Assembly (NCBI GenBank): GCA_028818755.1
Contig: JAPPNF010000037.1
Span: 1-45,764, forward strand
Origin: Deltaproteobacteria bacterium
Lineage (GTDB): Bacteria > Desulfobacterota > Binatia > UBA9968 > JAJDTQ01
Direction of reading: 5' to 3'
DNA length: 45,764 bases
A program made the position numbers and the translations under genes. Shown one piece after another: positions 21,882 to 26,982 of the stretch (positions within the stretch are counted from its first letter, which is position 1; the number at the start of each line of letters is the position of its first letter). The notes beneath the pieces are model-generated. The model did not search any database, was not told where the DNA came from, and worked only from the letters and a program-made list of their open reading frames with translations.

Positions 21882-22829
21882 TTACACCGAGAATTGCAGC
21901 AGTTCCCGGGCCAACCGCTTCTTGTCGTCGAGGGTGTCCATGCGGATGGACGTGGCGCGTGCGTCGACGCCGAGCTGTTCGATGGCGGGTTGCAGGCCGC
22001 GGTCCTCGGTATCGATGACCAGCACGTCCACGAAATCCCGGTAGGCCGCGGCAAGTCCGGTCACCGACGCCTCCACGCCCAGCGTGGCCATCAGCTTGTG
22101 GGCCGGGCCGCTGAAGGAGCGCCCCTGGACCATGGGGCTGACGGCCGCCACCTTGGCGGGTGTCTCCCGCAGCGCCGCGCGCACGCCGGGTACCGCGAGG
22201 ATGGGGCCGATGCTGGTGGCCGGGTTGCTGGGGCACACGACCACCAGGGCGGCGCCGTGGATGGCCTCGAGCAGCCCCGGCGACGGCCCGCAGGTTTCGA
22301 TGCCCCGGTAGCGCAGGCTCAGGACCTCCGGCTGCCAGCGCGCCTTGACGAAATATTCCTGGAAGGAAAGCTCCCCCGCCGAAGTGGACAGCCGGGTCTC
22401 CACCCGCTGGTCGGACATGGGCAGCACCGTGGATTTCACTCCCAGCGCCTGGCACAGCGCCGCGGTGACGCGCGACAACGGCTGTCCCTCGGTCAGGAGG
22501 CGCGTGCGGGTCAGGTGGGTAGCGATGTCCCGGTCGCCCAGATGGAACCAGGTCTCGCCGCCGAGCCGTTGGATCTGCTCCAGCACCGCAAAGGTATCGT
22601 CGTGGATGCCCCAGCCCTTGGCGGGGTCGATGAGGCCGGCGAGGGTGTAGACGATGGTGTCGACATCGGGGGATACGTGAAGGCCGTGCACCACCGAATC
22701 GTCGGCGGTGTTGCACACCACCACCAGATCTTCGGGTGCGGTCTCCTCGTGGAAGCCGAGGACGAGCTTTGCGCCGCCGGTGCCTCCCGTGAGGAGGACG
22801 AGTGTCCTGGAACTGGAGTCCCTGGACAC
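21882..22829 (-). CDS. cofD: 2-phospho-L-lactate transferase (F420-0 synthase) CofD
   Basis: Transfers the phospho-acid moiety from its GDP donor to Fo, giving F420-0 (or dehydro-F420-0). The 315-residue product has the family's start LTGGTGGAKLVLGF, the VVCNTADDSVVHGLHVSPD block near 38, and VCPSNPATSIGPIL with the conserved Asn/Pro loop. Length and motifs match CofD/FbiA. The start is GTG at 22829, 10 bases after the cofH stop, consistent with co-translation. Paralogues called YvcK/CofD-like share the fold but lack this gene context; the neighbouring cofH, cofG and cofE make CofD nearly certain. Confidence 0.94.
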   Translation of the reverse strand: MSRDSSSRTLVLLTGGTGGAKLVLGFHEETAPEDLVVVCNTADDSVVHGLHVSPDVDTIVYTLAGLIDPAKGWGIHDDTFAVLEQIQRLGGETWFHLGDRDIATHLTRTRLLTEGQPLSRVTAALCQALGVKSTVLPMSDQRVETRLSTSAGELSFQEYFVKARWQPEVLSLRYRGIETCGPSPGLLEAIHGAALVVVCPSNPATSIGPILAVPGVRAALRETPAKVAAVSPMVQGRSFSGPAHKLMATLGVEASVTGLAAAYRDFVDVLVIDTEDRGLQPAIEQLGVDARATSIRMDTLDDKKRLARELLQFSV

Positions 22830-22839
22830 CGCTGTCGCC

Positions 22840-24084
22840 TTACAGGCCGGCGGCCGTCTGGTCCGTCACGCCCACGGCAGGCGCGAGATCGCTCGCGAGG
22901 ACCTCGGACTCGTTCTCCCACGTCCGCAGGATCTCATAGCCCGTGGCACGCTCCGCCGGGATGCGGTTGATCTCGCGGATCAGCGAGCGGAACTCGTGGG
23001 GCCAGATCATCTGCCCCTCGGTGGAGCCGGCCAGCCGCGAGATGCTCTCTTCCATGAGCGTGCCGCCGAAGTCGTTGGCGCCAGAGCGGAGGCAGAGCTG
23101 CGACATCGGCCGTCCCATCTTCACCCACGAGACCTGGACGTTGGGAATGCTGTCGTTGAGCAGCACCCGCGCCAGGGCGTGGACCCGGATGTCCTCTTCC
23201 TCGGTGGGGCCGGGCCGCGCCAGCCCCTGGGCGTAGAGCGCGGTGTTCTCGTGCACGAACCCGAGCGGGACGAACTCTGTGAAGCCGCCGGTCTCCTTCT
23301 GGATGTCCCGCAGCAGCAGCATGTGGTTCACCCAGTGGCGGCCGTCCTCCCGGTGGCCGTACATCATGGTGGAGGTGGTGAAGATGCCCACCTCGTGGGC
23401 GGTGCGGATCACCCGAATCCACTGCTCGGTGCTGACCTTGTTCTTCGACAGCACCATGCGGACCTCGTCGTCGAGGATCTCCGCGGCCGTGCCCGGCACG
23501 CTGTCGAGGCCAGCGTCACGCAGCATCCGCAGGTAGTCGTCCAGGGGCATGCCGGTGAGTTCCACCCCGTAGGTGATCTCCATGGGCGAGTATGCGTGGA
23601 TGTGGATGCCGGGAACGCGGGAGCGAATGGACTGCAAGAGGTCCCGGTAATAGAACGGCGTCATGCCGCGGGGCAGGCCGCCCTGCATGCAGATCTCGGT
23701 GGCGCCGCGGTTCCACGCGTCCTCCGCCTTGTCCGCCACATCCTCCAGCGAATGATCCCAGCTTCCGGGCTTGTTGGGGCCGGTGTGGAACGCGCAGAAC
23801 TTGCAGCCGACGTAGCACACGTTGGTGAAGTTGATGTTGCGGCACACGACATAGGTGACGCGGTCGCCCACCTTTGCCTGCCGCATCAGGTCGGCCGTGA
23901 CCGCCAGAGCGGCAAGCTCGTCGCCGTCTACCTCCGACAGCGCGAAGCCTTCCTCACGCGTGATCTCGCGGCCCTCCAGGGCGCGCTCCAGGATTCGTGC
24001 GACTCGATCCTCGATGCGGGGCAACAGCCGGTTCAGCCGCTCGGCCCCGTCGTCATAATCGAACATCGCTTCGATGTGGCTCAT
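22840..24084 (-). CDS. cofH: Fo synthase subunit 2, radical SAM enzyme CofH
   Basis: With CofG makes the deazaflavin Fo from tyrosine and 5-amino-6-ribitylamino-uracil. The 414-residue radical SAM protein carries CYVGCKFCAF near residue 90, the CxxxCxxC cluster motif, preceded by NINFTNVC. MQGGLPRG and VPGTAAEIL are typical of the CofH/MqnC group; the adjacent cofG distinguishes it from menaquinone MqnC/MqnE enzymes. GGGAGGA five bases ahead supports ATG 24084, which lies inside the end of cofG (32-base overlap), indicating translational coupling. In actinobacteria the two are fused as FbiC; here they are separate. Confidence 0.94.
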   Translation of the reverse strand: MSHIEAMFDYDDGAERLNRLLPRIEDRVARILERALEGREITREEGFALSEVDGDELAALAVTADLMRQAKVGDRVTYVVCRNINFTNVCYVGCKFCAFHTGPNKPGSWDHSLEDVADKAEDAWNRGATEICMQGGLPRGMTPFYYRDLLQSIRSRVPGIHIHAYSPMEITYGVELTGMPLDDYLRMLRDAGLDSVPGTAAEILDDEVRMVLSKNKVSTEQWIRVIRTAHEVGIFTTSTMMYGHREDGRHWVNHMLLLRDIQKETGGFTEFVPLGFVHENTALYAQGLARPGPTEEEDIRVHALARVLLNDSIPNVQVSWVKMGRPMSQLCLRSGANDFGGTLMEESISRLAGSTEGQMIWPHEFRSLIREINRIPAERATGYEILRTWENESEVLASDLAPAVGVTDQTAAGL

Positions 24085-25261
24085 GATATCCTCCCGCGAC
24101 GAGGCCGTCCTCGCCGCACAACCTCTCTATGTATGGAATCAGCTCGGGCGCGACGAACCGCTCCGCCCGGGCGATGTATTCGGGGTAGACGGGGAGCCGG
24201 GGCCTTAACGTGAAGCCGGCCGCCGCGGTCCGCCGCACAAGCTCCTCCAGCTCAGGCCAAGGGGCCTCGGGGTTGATGAAGTCGCGGGTGACGGGGGACA
24301 CGCCGCCCCAGTCGTTGATGCCCGCGTTAAGGTACCACTCGTAGCATTCCGGCGTGAGGTTGGGCGGCGCCTGGACGTTCATGTCGCCGCCCAGGATCAG
24401 GCGCGCAAGGGCGATGGTCCTGGCCTCCTCCACGTAGTCCGCGTGCGGGTGATCACGCATGGGAATCTCGGGCTTCACGCGGAAGTTCTGGACGATCACT
24501 TCCTGGATGTGGCCGTAGCGCTCGTGCAACTCCCGAATGGCGTACAGCGACGCGATGCGCTCCTCCCGGGTCTCGCCGATGCCGATGAGGATCCCGGTGG
24601 TGAAGGGGATGCGCAATCGCCCTGCCTCCGCCAGGGTCCGAAGCCGGGCCGCCGGCTTCTTGTCCGGAGCGTCGGCATGGGGGCCGCCGGGTTCCATGAG
24701 GCGCTCGCTCACGTTCTCCAGCATGAGCCCCATGCTCACGTTGACCTGCCTGAGCCGCGCCAGGTCGGCGCGGGCCATGAGTCCGGGGTTGGCGTGAGGC
24801 AGCAACCCGGTCTCTTCAAGCACCACGCGGCAGGCGTCGTGCAGGTATTCCAGCGTCCGGCGGTAGCCTCCTTGCGCCAGGAACTCCCGCATCTCGGGAT
24901 AGATCGCTTCCGGCTTGTCGCCCAGGCTGAACAGCACCTCGGTGCAGCCCATGGCCCCGGCCCGCCGCACCGTCTCCAGCACCTCGTCCAGGGACAGGGT
25001 CTTGGCGCCGTCCTCTCCAGGCGCCTTGCGGAAGGTGCAATAGCCGCAGAAGTCGCGGCACAGATTGGTCAGCGGAATGAAGACCTTGGGGGAGAAGGTG
25101 ACGGTCCGGCCCTTGTGCCGGTCGCGCAACTCCGCGGCCGCTTGAAGCAGCGCCGTGAACTCATCTCCCTCGACACTGGACAGCAGGAGGGCGTCGCCCG
25201 GCGCTAAGGCCCCCCCATCGAGACATTCCTGCAGCAGTCGTGGGACTCGGCGCGTCGTCAT
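24053..25261 (-). CDS. cofG: Fo synthase subunit 1, radical SAM enzyme CofG
   Basis: Partner of CofH in forming Fo. The product of about 402 residues has the radical SAM motif CRDFCGYCTF (CxxxCxxC), then FSLGDKPE, LLPHANPGLM and NFRVKPEIPM, all CofG-like. It is the first gene of the F420 unit. The frame is open up to a TTG at 25312, but that codon overlaps a predicted -35 element. ATG 25261, 16 bases after the predicted transcription start, gives the conventional length, so it is preferred. The C-terminal 10 codons overlap cofH. Confidence 0.92.
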   Translation of the reverse strand: MTTRRVPRLLQECLDGGALAPGDALLLSSVEGDEFTALLQAAAELRDRHKGRTVTFSPKVFIPLTNLCRDFCGYCTFRKAPGEDGAKTLSLDEVLETVRRAGAMGCTEVLFSLGDKPEAIYPEMREFLAQGGYRRTLEYLHDACRVVLEETGLLPHANPGLMARADLARLRQVNVSMGLMLENVSERLMEPGGPHADAPDKKPAARLRTLAEAGRLRIPFTTGILIGIGETREERIASLYAIRELHERYGHIQEVIVQNFRVKPEIPMRDHPHADYVEEARTIALARLILGGDMNVQAPPNLTPECYEWYLNAGINDWGGVSPVTRDFINPEAPWPELEELVRRTAAAGFTLRPRLPVYPEYIARAERFVAPELIPYIERLCGEDGLVAGGYHEPHRSDVRL

Positions 25262-25283
25262 TGGCCAAACGCTCAAGATGGTC

Positions 25284-25312
25284 TGAATAACGGATAAGGG
25301 TGTGCAGGTCAA
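25284..25312 (-). promoter_or_regulatory. Predicted promoter of the F420 operon
   Basis: On the minus strand TTGACC (25307-25312, 5 of 6), a 17-base spacer and TATTCA (25284-25289, weak). Transcription would begin near 25277. The spacing and -35 sequence resemble the tRNA-Leu promoter in this window. Confidence 0.4.
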
Positions 25313-25396
25313 CTAGTGACCCAGTGCATTCGGGGTACGCAAGGGTCTTGCATTTTCGCGGCAGATGAAGGAAATTTTCTTCTTAATCCAACGCCC

Positions 25397-25427
25397 GTCT
25401 CCGGCGTAACGGAGACAAGGAGTCCGT
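25397..25427 (+). promoter_or_regulatory. Two mutually exclusive RNA hairpins around a ribosome binding site
   Basis: Hairpin A pairs GTCTCCG (25397-25403) with CGGAGAC (25110-equivalent arm at 25410-25416), 7 bp with a 6-base loop, and leaves the ribosome binding site AAGGAG (25417-25422) free. Hairpin B pairs ACGGA (25409-25413) with TCCGT (25423-25427), 5 bp, and puts AAGGAG in its loop. The two share bases 25410-25413 and cannot form together, so the site could be gated. Confidence 0.45.
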
Positions 25428-25429
25428 CA

Positions 25430-25552
25430 ATGTCAGATGACCCACAAGATGACAGTAAGCCTCCGTCGCGCAACTCGCACCTGAAGGCTCCCATCACCCT
25501 CCCCTGCTTCCTCAACGTCTCGATGTCTCCACCGGGACTCATGTGCCCCTAG
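25430..25552 (+). CDS. 40-residue acidic/proline-rich small ORF, candidate leader peptide
   Basis: A 40-codon ORF with a strong AAGGAG ribosome binding site 7 bases before ATG 25430. The N-terminus MSDDPQDDSKPP holds four Asp and three Pro within twelve residues; there are eight Pro overall and two Cys (residues 26 and 39). No domain is recognised. It lies 104 bases upstream of the CorC-family gene on the same strand, with two hairpins between. Acidic residues mixed with proline at the start are the hallmark of MgtL, the leader of the enterobacterial mgtA magnesium transporter gene, where such a nascent chain destabilises ribosomes at low magnesium. By analogy this may be a magnesium-sensing leader; a stand-alone peptide or chance ORF cannot be excluded. 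Confidence 0.55.
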   Translation: MSDDPQDDSKPPSRNSHLKAPITLPCFLNVSMSPPGLMCP

Positions 25553-25567
25553 AGTGAACTCAACGTC

Positions 25568-25599
25568 CGCGGGAATTCTCCGCGCCCGGCTCGTCCGGG
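25568..25599 (+). promoter_or_regulatory. Tandem hairpins in the leader of the CorC-family gene
   Basis: CGCGG/CCGCG (25568-25572 and 25580-25584) and CCCGG/CCGGG (25585-25589 and 25595-25599) are two perfect 5-bp stems back to back, about 57 bases upstream of the CorC start and 16 bases after the small-ORF stop. They could be attenuator elements; no T-run follows directly. Confidence 0.4.
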
Positions 25600-25656
25600 G
25601 GCGGGATTCTTCGTTGCCCTTTTGCGTCCCGGCATTCCCGGACGGGAGATTGATTC

Positions 25657-26982
25657 ATGCTTGACAGCATATGGTTGGGTGGAACCGTCATCTTTTTGTT
25701 AATCCTGGCCAACGGCTTTTTCGCCGCCGCGGAAATCGCCGTGATCGCCACGCGCAGGACCCGCATCGATCAGGTCCGCGGCAGGGGCGCGCGCTCGGCC
25801 GCGGCTCTGGGCCGGCTCAAGGACGAGCCCGACCGGTTTCTCGCCACGGTCCAGATCGGCATCACCTTCGTCGGCACCCTGGCCTCCGCCATCGGGGGAG
25901 CCGGAGCCATCCGGCTCCTGCAGCCGCACCTCCAGTCGTTGCCGATCCCTTACGCGGAGACCTGGGGCAACTATGCCGCCATCCTCATCGTGGTCCTGCC
26001 CATCGCCTATCTGAGCCTGGTCCTCGGCGAGCTCGTGCCCAAGTCGTTGGCGCTGCGCTATTCCGAGCGCATCGCGTTCTTCGTGGCGCTTCCCATCGAC
26101 GCCATCTCCAGGAGCACGTCGTTCCTGGTTCAGATACTGACACGCTCCAGCAATGTGGTCCTGCGGCTGTTCGGCGGCAAGGAAACCGGCTCCGCCAGCT
26201 TCATTTCCGAGGAAGAGGTCAAGTCGCTGATACGGGAAGGCACGGCCAAGGGGATCTTCGACGAGACCGAGAAGGAGTTGATCCACAGCGTCTTCGACTT
26301 CGTGGACACGCCGGTAAGGGCCGTGATGATCCCGCGCACAGAAATACACGCCGTCGATATCGGCACCGAGCCCGCCGATGTCCTGGGGAACTTCGTCGAG
26401 AGCGGCTTTTCCCGGCTGCCGGTGTACGAGAACGACCTCGATCAGGTGCTGGGCATCGCCTACAACAAGGACATCCTGCGGGCGATGCAGGCCAACGAGC
26501 CCATCGACCTCCGCAACATGCTGCATCCACCCTTCTTCGTGCCCAGCTCGCTGGCCATCAGCCAGTTGCTGAAGGACCTGCAGCGGCGGCGCATGGCCCT
26601 GGCCCTGGTGGTGAACGAGTACGGCGAGGTTGAAGGGCTGGTGACGCTGGAGGATGTCATCGAGGAAATCGTCGGCGAGATCCGCGACGAGTACGACGCC
26701 GAGGAGCGCGGCCCGGTGGAGCGGCTGCCGGACGGCTCGCTGGTGGTGTCGGGCTCCGCCCTGCTCCGTGACCTCCAGTCCGACTACGACCTGCCCTTCG
26801 AGGAGTCGGTGGACTACCACACCCTGGCGGGGTTCGTTTTGGCCAAGCTGAAGCGCATACCCCGAGGGGGCGAGAAGATCGAGACGGACGGCCACCGGCT
26901 CACCATCGTCGACGTGGAGGGCCGCAGGATCGTGAAGATCCGGGTGGAAGAGAACCGTCGCGCCAACGGCGGCGCGGTGTAA
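25657..26982 (+). CDS. CorC/HlyC family (DUF21-CBS) membrane protein, likely magnesium/cobalt transport
   Basis: A 441-residue inner-membrane protein with a DUF21 (CNNM) transmembrane domain of about four helices at 1-190 (including the conserved ANGFFAAAEIAVIA start and VLGELVPKSLAL). A tandem CBS pair follows at about 205-340 (MIPRTEIHAVD, SRLPVYE, VNEYGEVEGLVTLEDVIEEIVGEI) and then the CorC_HlyC C-terminal domain. Relatives are linked to magnesium and cobalt efflux (CorC) and bacterial CNNM proteins to sodium-driven magnesium export; the name hemolysin is historical. GGGAG precedes ATG 25657 by about 8 bases. The long 5' leader contains a small ORF and hairpins. A PPOX gene follows 24 bases later. 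Confidence 0.9.
   Translation: MLDSIWLGGTVIFLLILANGFFAAAEIAVIATRRTRIDQVRGRGARSAAALGRLKDEPDRFLATVQIGITFVGTLASAIGGAGAIRLLQPHLQSLPIPYAETWGNYAAILIVVLPIAYLSLVLGELVPKSLALRYSERIAFFVALPIDAISRSTSFLVQILTRSSNVVLRLFGGKETGSASFISEEEVKSLIREGTAKGIFDETEKELIHSVFDFVDTPVRAVMIPRTEIHAVDIGTEPADVLGNFVESGFSRLPVYENDLDQVLGIAYNKDILRAMQANEPIDLRNMLHPPFFVPSSLAISQLLKDLQRRRMALALVVNEYGEVEGLVTLEDVIEEIVGEIRDEYDAEERGPVERLPDGSLVVSGSALLRDLQSDYDLPFEESVDYHTLAGFVLAKLKRIPRGGEKIETDGHRLTIVDVEGRRIVKIRVEENRRANGGAV

What the first reader, a model, noticed from the sequence alone, without database searches (positions are those of the whole stretch)
25430..25656. Acidic/proline-rich leader ORF upstream of a CorC-family magnesium gene, MgtL-like in logic
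Seen: a 40-codon ORF with a strong ribosome binding site ends 104 bases before a CorC/CNNM-family gene on the same strand. Its first twelve residues hold four Asp and three Pro, and two tandem hairpins lie between ORF and gene. Known: in enterobacteria the MgtL leader (acidic and proline codons at its start) senses low Mg2+ through ribosome destabilisation and controls the mgtA transporter gene. Inference: this is an independent leader of the same logic in front of a different class of Mg2+ protein, in an unrelated lineage. I know of no described leader of this kind for CorC/CNNM genes.
Basis: partly seen in the sequence, partly recalled or inferred. Interest (0 to 1): 0.75.

Follow-up and report, generated by a model that had tools for sequence, protein, structure and literature searches.

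The report
Conserved leader ORF before corC gene
In a genus of uncultured bacteria, a gene for a membrane protein of a magnesium-handling family is preceded by a tiny conserved reading frame whose acidic, proline-rich start and C-rich second half suggest that it switches the gene by letting the ribosome shield, or expose, the message.

Summary
A 40-codon ORF with a good ribosome-binding site (25430-25552 +) ends 104 nt before a CNNM/CorC gene in a Candidatus Binatia-type genome. D3, D4, D7, D8, P11 and P12 never change, and codons 2-14 show excess synonymous change (permutation P 0.0005-0.0056 over three trees). Codons 21-40 show no amino-acid constraint but hold the window's most C-over-G 63-nt stretch on the + strand, kept in all 8. 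In other genera of the order 9 of 17 corC loci share the promoter element, and most such leaders start with short ORFs of unrelated sequence. 'MgtL logic' is only partly supported: an Mg2+-sensitive start is plausible, but no MgtL-type alternative stems appear and an efflux-type gene would need the opposite sign. Best reading: a Rho-shielding leader; a ribosome that completes the ORF covers a rut-like stretch and corC is made, one lost on DDPQDD exposes it. Conservation is shown; translation, Rho, Mg2+ and direction are inferred. Leaders for CorC-domain genes are not wholly new (YoaL).

The parts
25347..25376 (+). putative promoter P1: CTTGCATTT with -35-like TTGCAT (25348-25353), 17-nt spacer, -10-like GAAATT (25371-25376)
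   Evidence: CTTGC[AT]TTT kept in 8 of 8 genus genomes; CTTGCNTTT occurs once on the two strands of the window and at -158 to -182 of corC in 9 of 17 same-order loci. Both hexamers match the sigma-70 consensus at only 3 of 6 and the consensus scan reported no promoter here.
25397..25416 (+). 5' UTR hairpin directly 5' of the leader ORF's Shine-Dalgarno
   Evidence: folds in 8 of 8 (-9.6 to -15.6 kcal/mol for 36 nt); z -2.3 in the window sequence; arms covary between the two sub-groups (CCG/CGG versus CCU/AGG in most, read by eye)
25417..25422 (+). Shine-Dalgarno AAGGAG of the leader ORF
   Evidence: invariant in 8 of 8
25430..25552 (+). leader ORF, 40 codons + TAG; acidic/Pro start MSDDPQDDSxPPS
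   Evidence: a profile of the 8 finds it in 8 of 145 genomes at E <= 2e-22, all in this genus before corC; next best 0.007
25451..25553 (+). C-over-G bubble (rut-like), peak window 25471-25533
   Evidence: C minus G = 22 in 63 nt, the maximum of the window's + strand (- strand maximum 21); 19-22 within the ORF in all 8 genus members; the ORF RNA is no more structured than shuffles (z +0.8)
25580..25602 (+). hairpin H2 after the leader stop; no proper T-run follows
   Evidence: folds in 8 of 8; terminator-like pattern at 25590-25605, 1 found versus 0.5 expected in shuffles
25624..25648 (+). hairpin H3 just 5' of the corC Shine-Dalgarno GGGAG
25657..26982 (+). corC: CNNM transmembrane domain, CBS pair, CorC_HlyC domain, 441 aa
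   Evidence: Pfam; solved relatives 7m1t and 7m1u (E 1.4e-44, 9.1e-44), 4hg0 named CorC (2.6e-37)

Best explanation
The ORF is a translated cis-regulatory leader of corC that works by controlling ribosome cover of a Rho-loading stretch. Transcription from P1 yields a leader with a strong start site. Its first codons make MSDDPQDDSxPPS, an acidic/Pro nascent chain of the kind that destabilises ribosomes, more so when Mg2+ is low. If the ribosome passes, it covers the C-rich second half of the ORF, Rho cannot load, and polymerase goes on through H2/H3 into corC. If it is lost early, the C-rich stretch is bare, Rho loads and transcription stops in the 104-nt spacer or early corC. Predicted sign: corC on at high Mg2+, off at low Mg2+, the reverse of MgtL-mgtA and right for an exporter. 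Shown: conservation, coding signal of the start, C-over-G bubble, conserved upstream promoter candidate. Inferred: translation in the cell, Rho, Mg2+, sign. My odds: translated leader about 0.8 (lowered from 0.85 after the tree check); acts in cis on corC about 0.65; Rho shielding about 0.4; Mg2+ through the acidic start about 0.35; all together about 0.25-0.3.
For: 8 of 8 conservation; synonymous bias in the acidic/Pro start, P 0.0005-0.0056, and no amino-acid constraint in codons 21-40; in three cross-sub-group pairs the ORF differs less than the 5' UTR and, for most of its length, than the spacer; C-over-G bubble the + strand maximum and kept in 8 of 8, as a rut should be where amino acids do not matter; the ORF found only before corC; upstream promoter element shared with other genera; Rho over cut-off in 8 of 8; an EttA-type ABC-F, a factor that relieves acidic-residue drop-off in E. 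coli, over cut-off in 8 of 8. Precedents: CruR, whose C>G bubble lies in the uORF and where premature stops abolish downstream expression (PMC9426467, passages); MgtL's EPDP drop-off at low Mg2+ (PMC11282234, passages); CorC and MgpA of Salmonella induced at high Mg2+.
Against: No expression data of any kind. The ORF is limited to one genus. The amino-acid bias rests on 15-17 inferred changes, parsimony and a tree whose nodes are mostly weak (38-79% at four of five). The stretch 25263-25310 upstream, outside the leader, is as well or better kept than the ORF between sub-groups (0.09-0.13), so conservation alone is not special. Acid density is modest (two DD pairs). C-over-G bubbles are a weak predictor: 13 other + strand clusters among the window's top 120 windows reach 18-21. 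P1 is far from consensus. The Mg2+ specificity of this CorC protein is assumed from its family.
Confidence: 0.27

Rival explanations
1. MgtL wiring proper: full translation of the ORF at high Mg2+ lets Rho stop transcription, abortion at low Mg2+ turns corC on.
For: acidic/Pro start and hairpins downstream, as in MgtL/CorL
Against: no alternative stems in the consensus folds; C-rich stretch lies inside the ORF, where a complete pass hides it; sign wrong for an efflux-type protein
Confidence: 0.12
2. Nascent-chain or Pro-dependent pause leader (TnaC/CruR type): ribosomes pause at PPS (codons 11-13) or at the conserved end P-[PS]-G-x-M-x-P-stop, keeping Rho off; the signal is EF-P/tRNA-Pro supply or something else, not Mg2+.
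For: P11, P12, P34, G36, M38 and P40 invariant in 8 of 8 with codon 37 highly variable between them; PPG in 4 of 8, PSG in 4 of 8; CruR uses a RAPP pause to hold off Rho
Against: codons 34, 36, 38, 40 show no change even at synonymous sites, so RNA constraint is not separated from peptide constraint (event list); the acidic start is left unexplained
Confidence: 0.2
3. Plain translational support: the ORF keeps the leader ribosome-covered or helps open H3 at the corC start, with no signal sensed.
For: H3 abuts the corC Shine-Dalgarno in 8 of 8; spacer of 100-106 nt in all 8
Against: does not explain why the acidic/Pro start alone is kept at amino-acid level; a 100-nt spacer is long for reinitiation (general knowledge)
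Confidence: 0.2
4. A functional small protein that happens to sit before corC.
For: ORF conserved in one genus with strong start site
Against: no amino-acid constraint in codons 21-40; no Pfam match; single context
Confidence: 0.12
5. Conserved non-coding leader RNA; the open frame is incidental.
For: a permuted frame has no stop in 17-26% of trials and the whole-ORF synonymous test is not significant; hairpins conserved
Against: synonymous bias in codons 2-14 (P 0.0005-0.0056), frame-keeping indel, invariant SD/ATG/TAG; no Rfam match in the leader
Confidence: 0.1

Closest known systems
MgtL leader of mgtA and CorL leader of corA (enterobacteria)
   Same: short ORF in the leader of a Mg2+ gene, acidic/Pro in MgtL; Rho named as effector in Salmonella mgtA and in corA, not found for mgtA in E. 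coli (PMC11552253 and PMC11282234, passages)
   Different: no EPDP motif but DDPQDD; ORF 40 codons; C-rich stretch inside the ORF; no alternative stems found; gene is a CNNM/CorC protein, so the predicted sign is opposite; no homologue of the ORF found outside one Binatia genus (145 genomes)
CruR (Bp2923), copper-responsive uORF of Bordetella
   Same: C-over-G bubble starting in the uORF where amino acids do not matter; ribosome on the uORF keeps Rho off; Pro-Pro element (PMC9426467, passages)
   Different: CruR is a DUF2946 protein that senses copper by CXXC; our ORF has no Pfam match
YoaL leader of mgpA/yoaE and the destabilising start of CorC/YbeX in Salmonella/E. coli
   Same: leader or acidic start tied to a CorC-domain gene; loss of the YoaL start lowers MgpA translation, the same sign as proposed here (PMC12421838, passages)
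   Different: YoaL overlaps the upstream region of mgpA; Rho is not mentioned in that paper (0 occurrences); no sequence comparison was made here
[quoted passage not shown]
   Same: Asp/Glu codons at the start abort translation and control a Mg2+ gene (PMC8092293, passages)
   Different: 8 codons, acts by freeing the RBS of mgtB, with abortion raising an importer as in MgtL

Membership tests
MgtL-type Mg2+ leader | short ORF in the 5' leader of a Mg2+ transport gene | tested here: inconclusive
   ORF before corC in 8 of 8; gene is CNNM/CBS/CorC_HlyC. That it carries Mg2+ is a family inference, and the transcript start is unproven
MgtL-type Mg2+ leader | acidic and Pro codons at the ORF start | tested here: met
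   D3 D4 D7 D8 P11 P12 invariant in 8 of 8, P5 in 7 of 8; synonymous bias P 0.0005-0.0056
MgtL-type Mg2+ leader | EPDP destabilising motif | tested here: not met
   DDPQDD instead; motif named
MgtL-type Mg2+ leader | mutually exclusive leader stems | tested here: not met
   consensus folds show local hairpins, no conserved switch; minimum-energy folds only, so a switch is not excluded
MgtL-type Mg2+ leader | Rho-dependent termination in the leader | tested here: inconclusive
   C-over-G bubble present, rho gene present; no termination data
MgtL-type Mg2+ leader | Mg2+-dependent loss of the ribosome | not testable with these tools
   needs in vitro translation or profiling
Rho-shielding uORF (CruR-like working) | C-over-G bubble in the uORF | tested here: met
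Rho-shielding uORF (CruR-like working) | amino acids of the bubble region unconstrained | tested here: met
   codons 21-40: 8 synonymous of 41 changes, 10.1 expected; 8-9 of 41-42 with other trees and tie-breaks, 8.3-12.1 expected
[quoted passage not shown]
   no Pfam match for the ORF
M-box or other known Mg2+ riboswitch | Rfam covariance match in the leader | tested here: not met
   only two tRNAs in the whole window at gathering scores

The most novel reading that the evidence does not exclude
corC genes across this Binatia order are governed by leader ORFs at the start of their transcripts (short, near-leaderless ORFs of fast-changing sequence in one family; a 40-codon acidic/Pro ORF in this genus) that act as Mg2+-gated Rho shields: an inverted MgtL for a Mg2+ exporter, evolved independently.
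Probability: 0.2. Interest if true: 0.75.

Novelty: new variant of a known kind. Interest (0 to 1): 0.5.

Why it matters
If true, nascent-chain sensing of Mg2+ was invented again outside enterobacteria, on the export side of Mg2+ balance and with reversed output obtained simply by moving the Rho-loading stretch into the ORF. It would give a design rule (where the rut lies sets the sign) and a genomic search image, acidic/Pro start plus C-over-G tail, for metal leaders in uncultured phyla. Even the modest claim, a conserved coding leader before a CNNM/CorC gene, adds to the few leaders I found reported for this gene family.

Tried and rejected
Homologues of the ORF outside the genus: the profile search of 145 genomes, run at E <= 0.5, listed weak hits in 63 genomes, but only the 8 of the genus were below 0.006 (next 0.00677). 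Known RNA families: none in the leader. A long-range switch between ORF and spacer: the consensus fold shows only a 6-bp match between the 5' UTR arm GUCUCC and the corC Shine-Dalgarno, which any anti-SD-like arm would give; not used. Intrinsic terminator at H2: weak tail, 1 found against 0.5 in shuffles, and the T-run is not kept in the second sub-group (by eye). Conserved ATGAAGGA at 25365 as an alternative start: in frame with the leader ORF in L006, not in the window, L003, L004 or L005 (by eye; the other three not checked); rejected.

Order-level pattern, with its misses: of 17 same-order loci read with upstream sequence, 9 have CTTGCNTTT within 250 nt; L018 was added by a looser pattern. 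L015, L016 and L027 have matches only at -357 to -415 and were left out; L016's lies in a neighbouring gene (by eye), and two of the three have no early ATG. Of the 10 kept (L024 and L025 near-identical, counted once = 9), 8 have a first ATG within 20 nt of the -10 and an ORF of 13-21 codons; shuffles give 2.2 and 0.36, 0 of 3000 reaching the observed; the cut-offs were set after seeing the data. Two hold-outs looked at afterwards: both have P1, one has the ORF (17 codons, resembling that of L017 from the same genus), one has none. Pro excess 16 of 80 versus 10.6, P 0.041; acidic residues are 3 of 80 by eye, so these ORFs are not acidic like the window's. Not used: L020, L028, L029 (cut at contig starts), L030 and L031 (about 40% identical paralogues), genomes without this corC.

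Weakening checks told: whole-ORF dN/dS-like ratio 0.65 in the coding frame against 0.59 in one antisense frame, so that crude measure does not single out the frame; tree and tie-break choice moves the codon 2-14 P from 0.0005 to 0.0056.

Full report
What is there. The ORF at 25430-25552 (+) reads MSDDPQDDSKPPSRNSHLKAPITLPCFLNVSMSPPGLMCP-stop, with AAGGAG 7 nt before its ATG and 104 nt from its stop to the ATG of a 441-codon gene. That gene has the CNNM transmembrane domain, CBS pair and CorC_HlyC domain; its best solved relatives by sequence are 7m1t and 7m1u, and 4hg0, named CorC, is also matched. The window lies in a 4.9-Mb assembly whose nearest named relatives are Candidatus Binatia or Deltaproteobacteria MAGs. 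Upstream, on the other strand, lies a gene I recall as an F420-synthesis gene (not tested).

Conservation. Of 9 genus genomes searched (window included), 8 hold this corC (G006, 76% complete, does not) and all 8 hold the ORF, at 40 codons in 7 and 41 in one, which has a single in-frame 3-nt insertion. A profile of the 8 finds nothing else convincing in 145 genomes: 8 hits at E <= 2e-22, next 0.007, and a tail of weak hits up to the 0.5 limit. Asp 3, 4, 7, 8 and Pro 11, 12 are invariant; Pro5 is kept in 7 of 8. In the three pairs compared across the two sub-groups, codons 1-14 differ at 0.14-0.17 of sites, 15-20 at 0.17-0.28 and 21-41 at 0.21-0.24, against 0.38-0.48 for the 5' UTR, 0.27-0.33 for the spacer, 0.21-0.33 for P1 and 0.29-0.38 for synonymous sites of corC, uncorrected. 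The stretch 25263-25310, outside the leader, is kept as well or better (0.09-0.13), and within sub-groups the contrast is weak: window against L003 the spacer (0.08) is better kept than codons 21-41 (0.14).

Two halves with different constraint. I placed the changes on the corC tree and re-dealt them among sites with the same base. Codons 2-14: 11 of 17 changes synonymous, 4.5 expected, P 0.0005. Codons 2-20: 17 of 31, P 0.0013. Whole ORF: 25 of 72, P 0.11. Codons 15-40: 14 of 55, 14.5 expected. Codons 21-40: 8 of 41, 10.1 expected, no bias. Five segments were tested. Repeating this with a leader tree, a joint tree and the other tie-break gives P 0.0006-0.0056 for codons 2-14 and 0.0008-0.026 for codons 2-20. 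No stop arises, but 17-26% of re-dealings of the whole ORF have none either. A simple ratio of nonsynonymous to synonymous difference over the whole ORF (0.65) does not single out the frame (0.59 in one antisense frame).

The second half is a C-over-G bubble. In 63-nt windows, C minus G peaks at 22 for the window starting at 25471, the maximum of the + strand of the 45.8-kb window; the maximum of the - strand is 21; 13 other + strand clusters among the top 120 windows reach 18-21. All 8 genus members have 19-22 in the ORF, not compared with their own genomes. Such bubbles are taken as marks of Rho-loading stretches, and in CruR one lies in a uORF with amino acids that do not matter there (PMC9426467, passages). 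Rho is present over cut-off in 8 of 8 genomes.

Transcript. CTTGCNTTT occurs once on the two strands of the window, at 25347. It is in 8 of 8 genus members, with 51-54 nt from the -10-like hexamer to the ORF, and 158-182 nt before corC in 9 of 17 loci of the same order, followed there by TAGAAT-like hexamers. The consensus promoter scan reported no site in the region; both hexamers of the genus match the consensus at 3 of 6 only. I take it as the corC promoter, with moderate confidence; it would put the ORF in the corC leader. Three local hairpins fold in 8 of 8: before the ORF's SD (z -2.3 in the window), H2 after the stop, H3 before the corC SD. The spacer as a whole is not unusually stable (z -1.1, -0.6, -1.2 in three members), and no switch is visible.

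Other genera of the order. Their corC leaders do not have this ORF. Eight of nine non-redundant P1 leaders start an ORF of 13-21 codons 8-16 nt after the -10, five of the eight with 17 codons; shuffles give 2.2 for the early ATG and 0.36 for the full criterion, with cut-offs chosen after the fact. A hold-out of two gave promoter 2 of 2, ORF 1 of 2. Pro is mildly enriched (16 of 80, 10.6 expected, P 0.041), acidic residues are not. Sequences look unrelated between most genera. I read this as a hint that corC leaders in the order tend to be translated, no more.

How it most likely works. The start DDPQDD fits what is published for ribosome drop-off: acidic residues adjacent or one apart within the first 30, helped by Pro, relieved by EttA (PMC11282234, passages); an EttA-type protein is present over cut-off in 8 of 8 (the family also lights up many other ABC proteins below cut-off). 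In MgtL such drop-off at low Mg2+ turns an importer gene on. Here the C-rich stretch lies in the ORF after the acidic start, so a ribosome that falls off bares it and one that goes on covers it. Rho would then stop corC at low Mg2+. That is the useful direction for an efflux-type CorC protein: in Salmonella, CorC and MgpA protect from excess Mg2+ and are induced by high Mg2+, and the authors suggest, as hypotheses, that a destabilising start in CorC and the leader YoaL may serve this (PMC12421838, passages). Every step from translation onward is inference.

Known or new. Ten literature searches (open-licence PMC papers only, listings capped) showed no acidic/Pro leader ORF upstream of a CNNM/CorC gene outside enterobacteria in the rows listed. 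No held paper has both 'Binatota' and 'leader peptide'. Of 40 rows listed of 45 papers with two of 'CorC', 'leader peptide', 'upstream open reading frame', three hold 'CorC', and of these I read passages of PMC12421838 only. Subscription papers were not covered. It works like MgtL in its suspected sensor and like CruR in its suspected output, and is a member of neither by sequence. I rate it a new variant of a known kind.

Noticed in passing
25529-25552 and aligned loci: The ORF's end keeps P34, G36, M38, P40 and CCC-TAG in 8 of 8 while codon 37 is highly variable; looks like P-[PS]-G-x-M-x-P-stop, a possible termination pause.
   Followed up: partly
L011, L012, L013, L014, L019, within about 100 nt upstream of corC: A second promoter-like element, TTTGTTGA (TTTGTCGG in L019) with TATCAT/TATGAT about 17 nt on, seen by eye; L014 has both this and P1.
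   Followed up: no
25364-25376: Block GATGAAGGARATT kept in 8 of 8 genus members across the -10-like hexamer of P1; unusually well kept for a weak -10, possibly an operator or a further start.
   Followed up: no
L015, about 157-95 nt before corC: The one genome of family f2 has an even stronger C-over-G stretch (23 in 63 nt) in its corC upstream region, inside a 57-codon ORF of unrelated sequence.
   Followed up: partly
21882-25312, - strand: Three adjacent ORFs that I recall as F420-synthesis genes run divergently from corC; only the start of the one next to corC was seen in the alignment with relatives. Names not tested.
   Followed up: no
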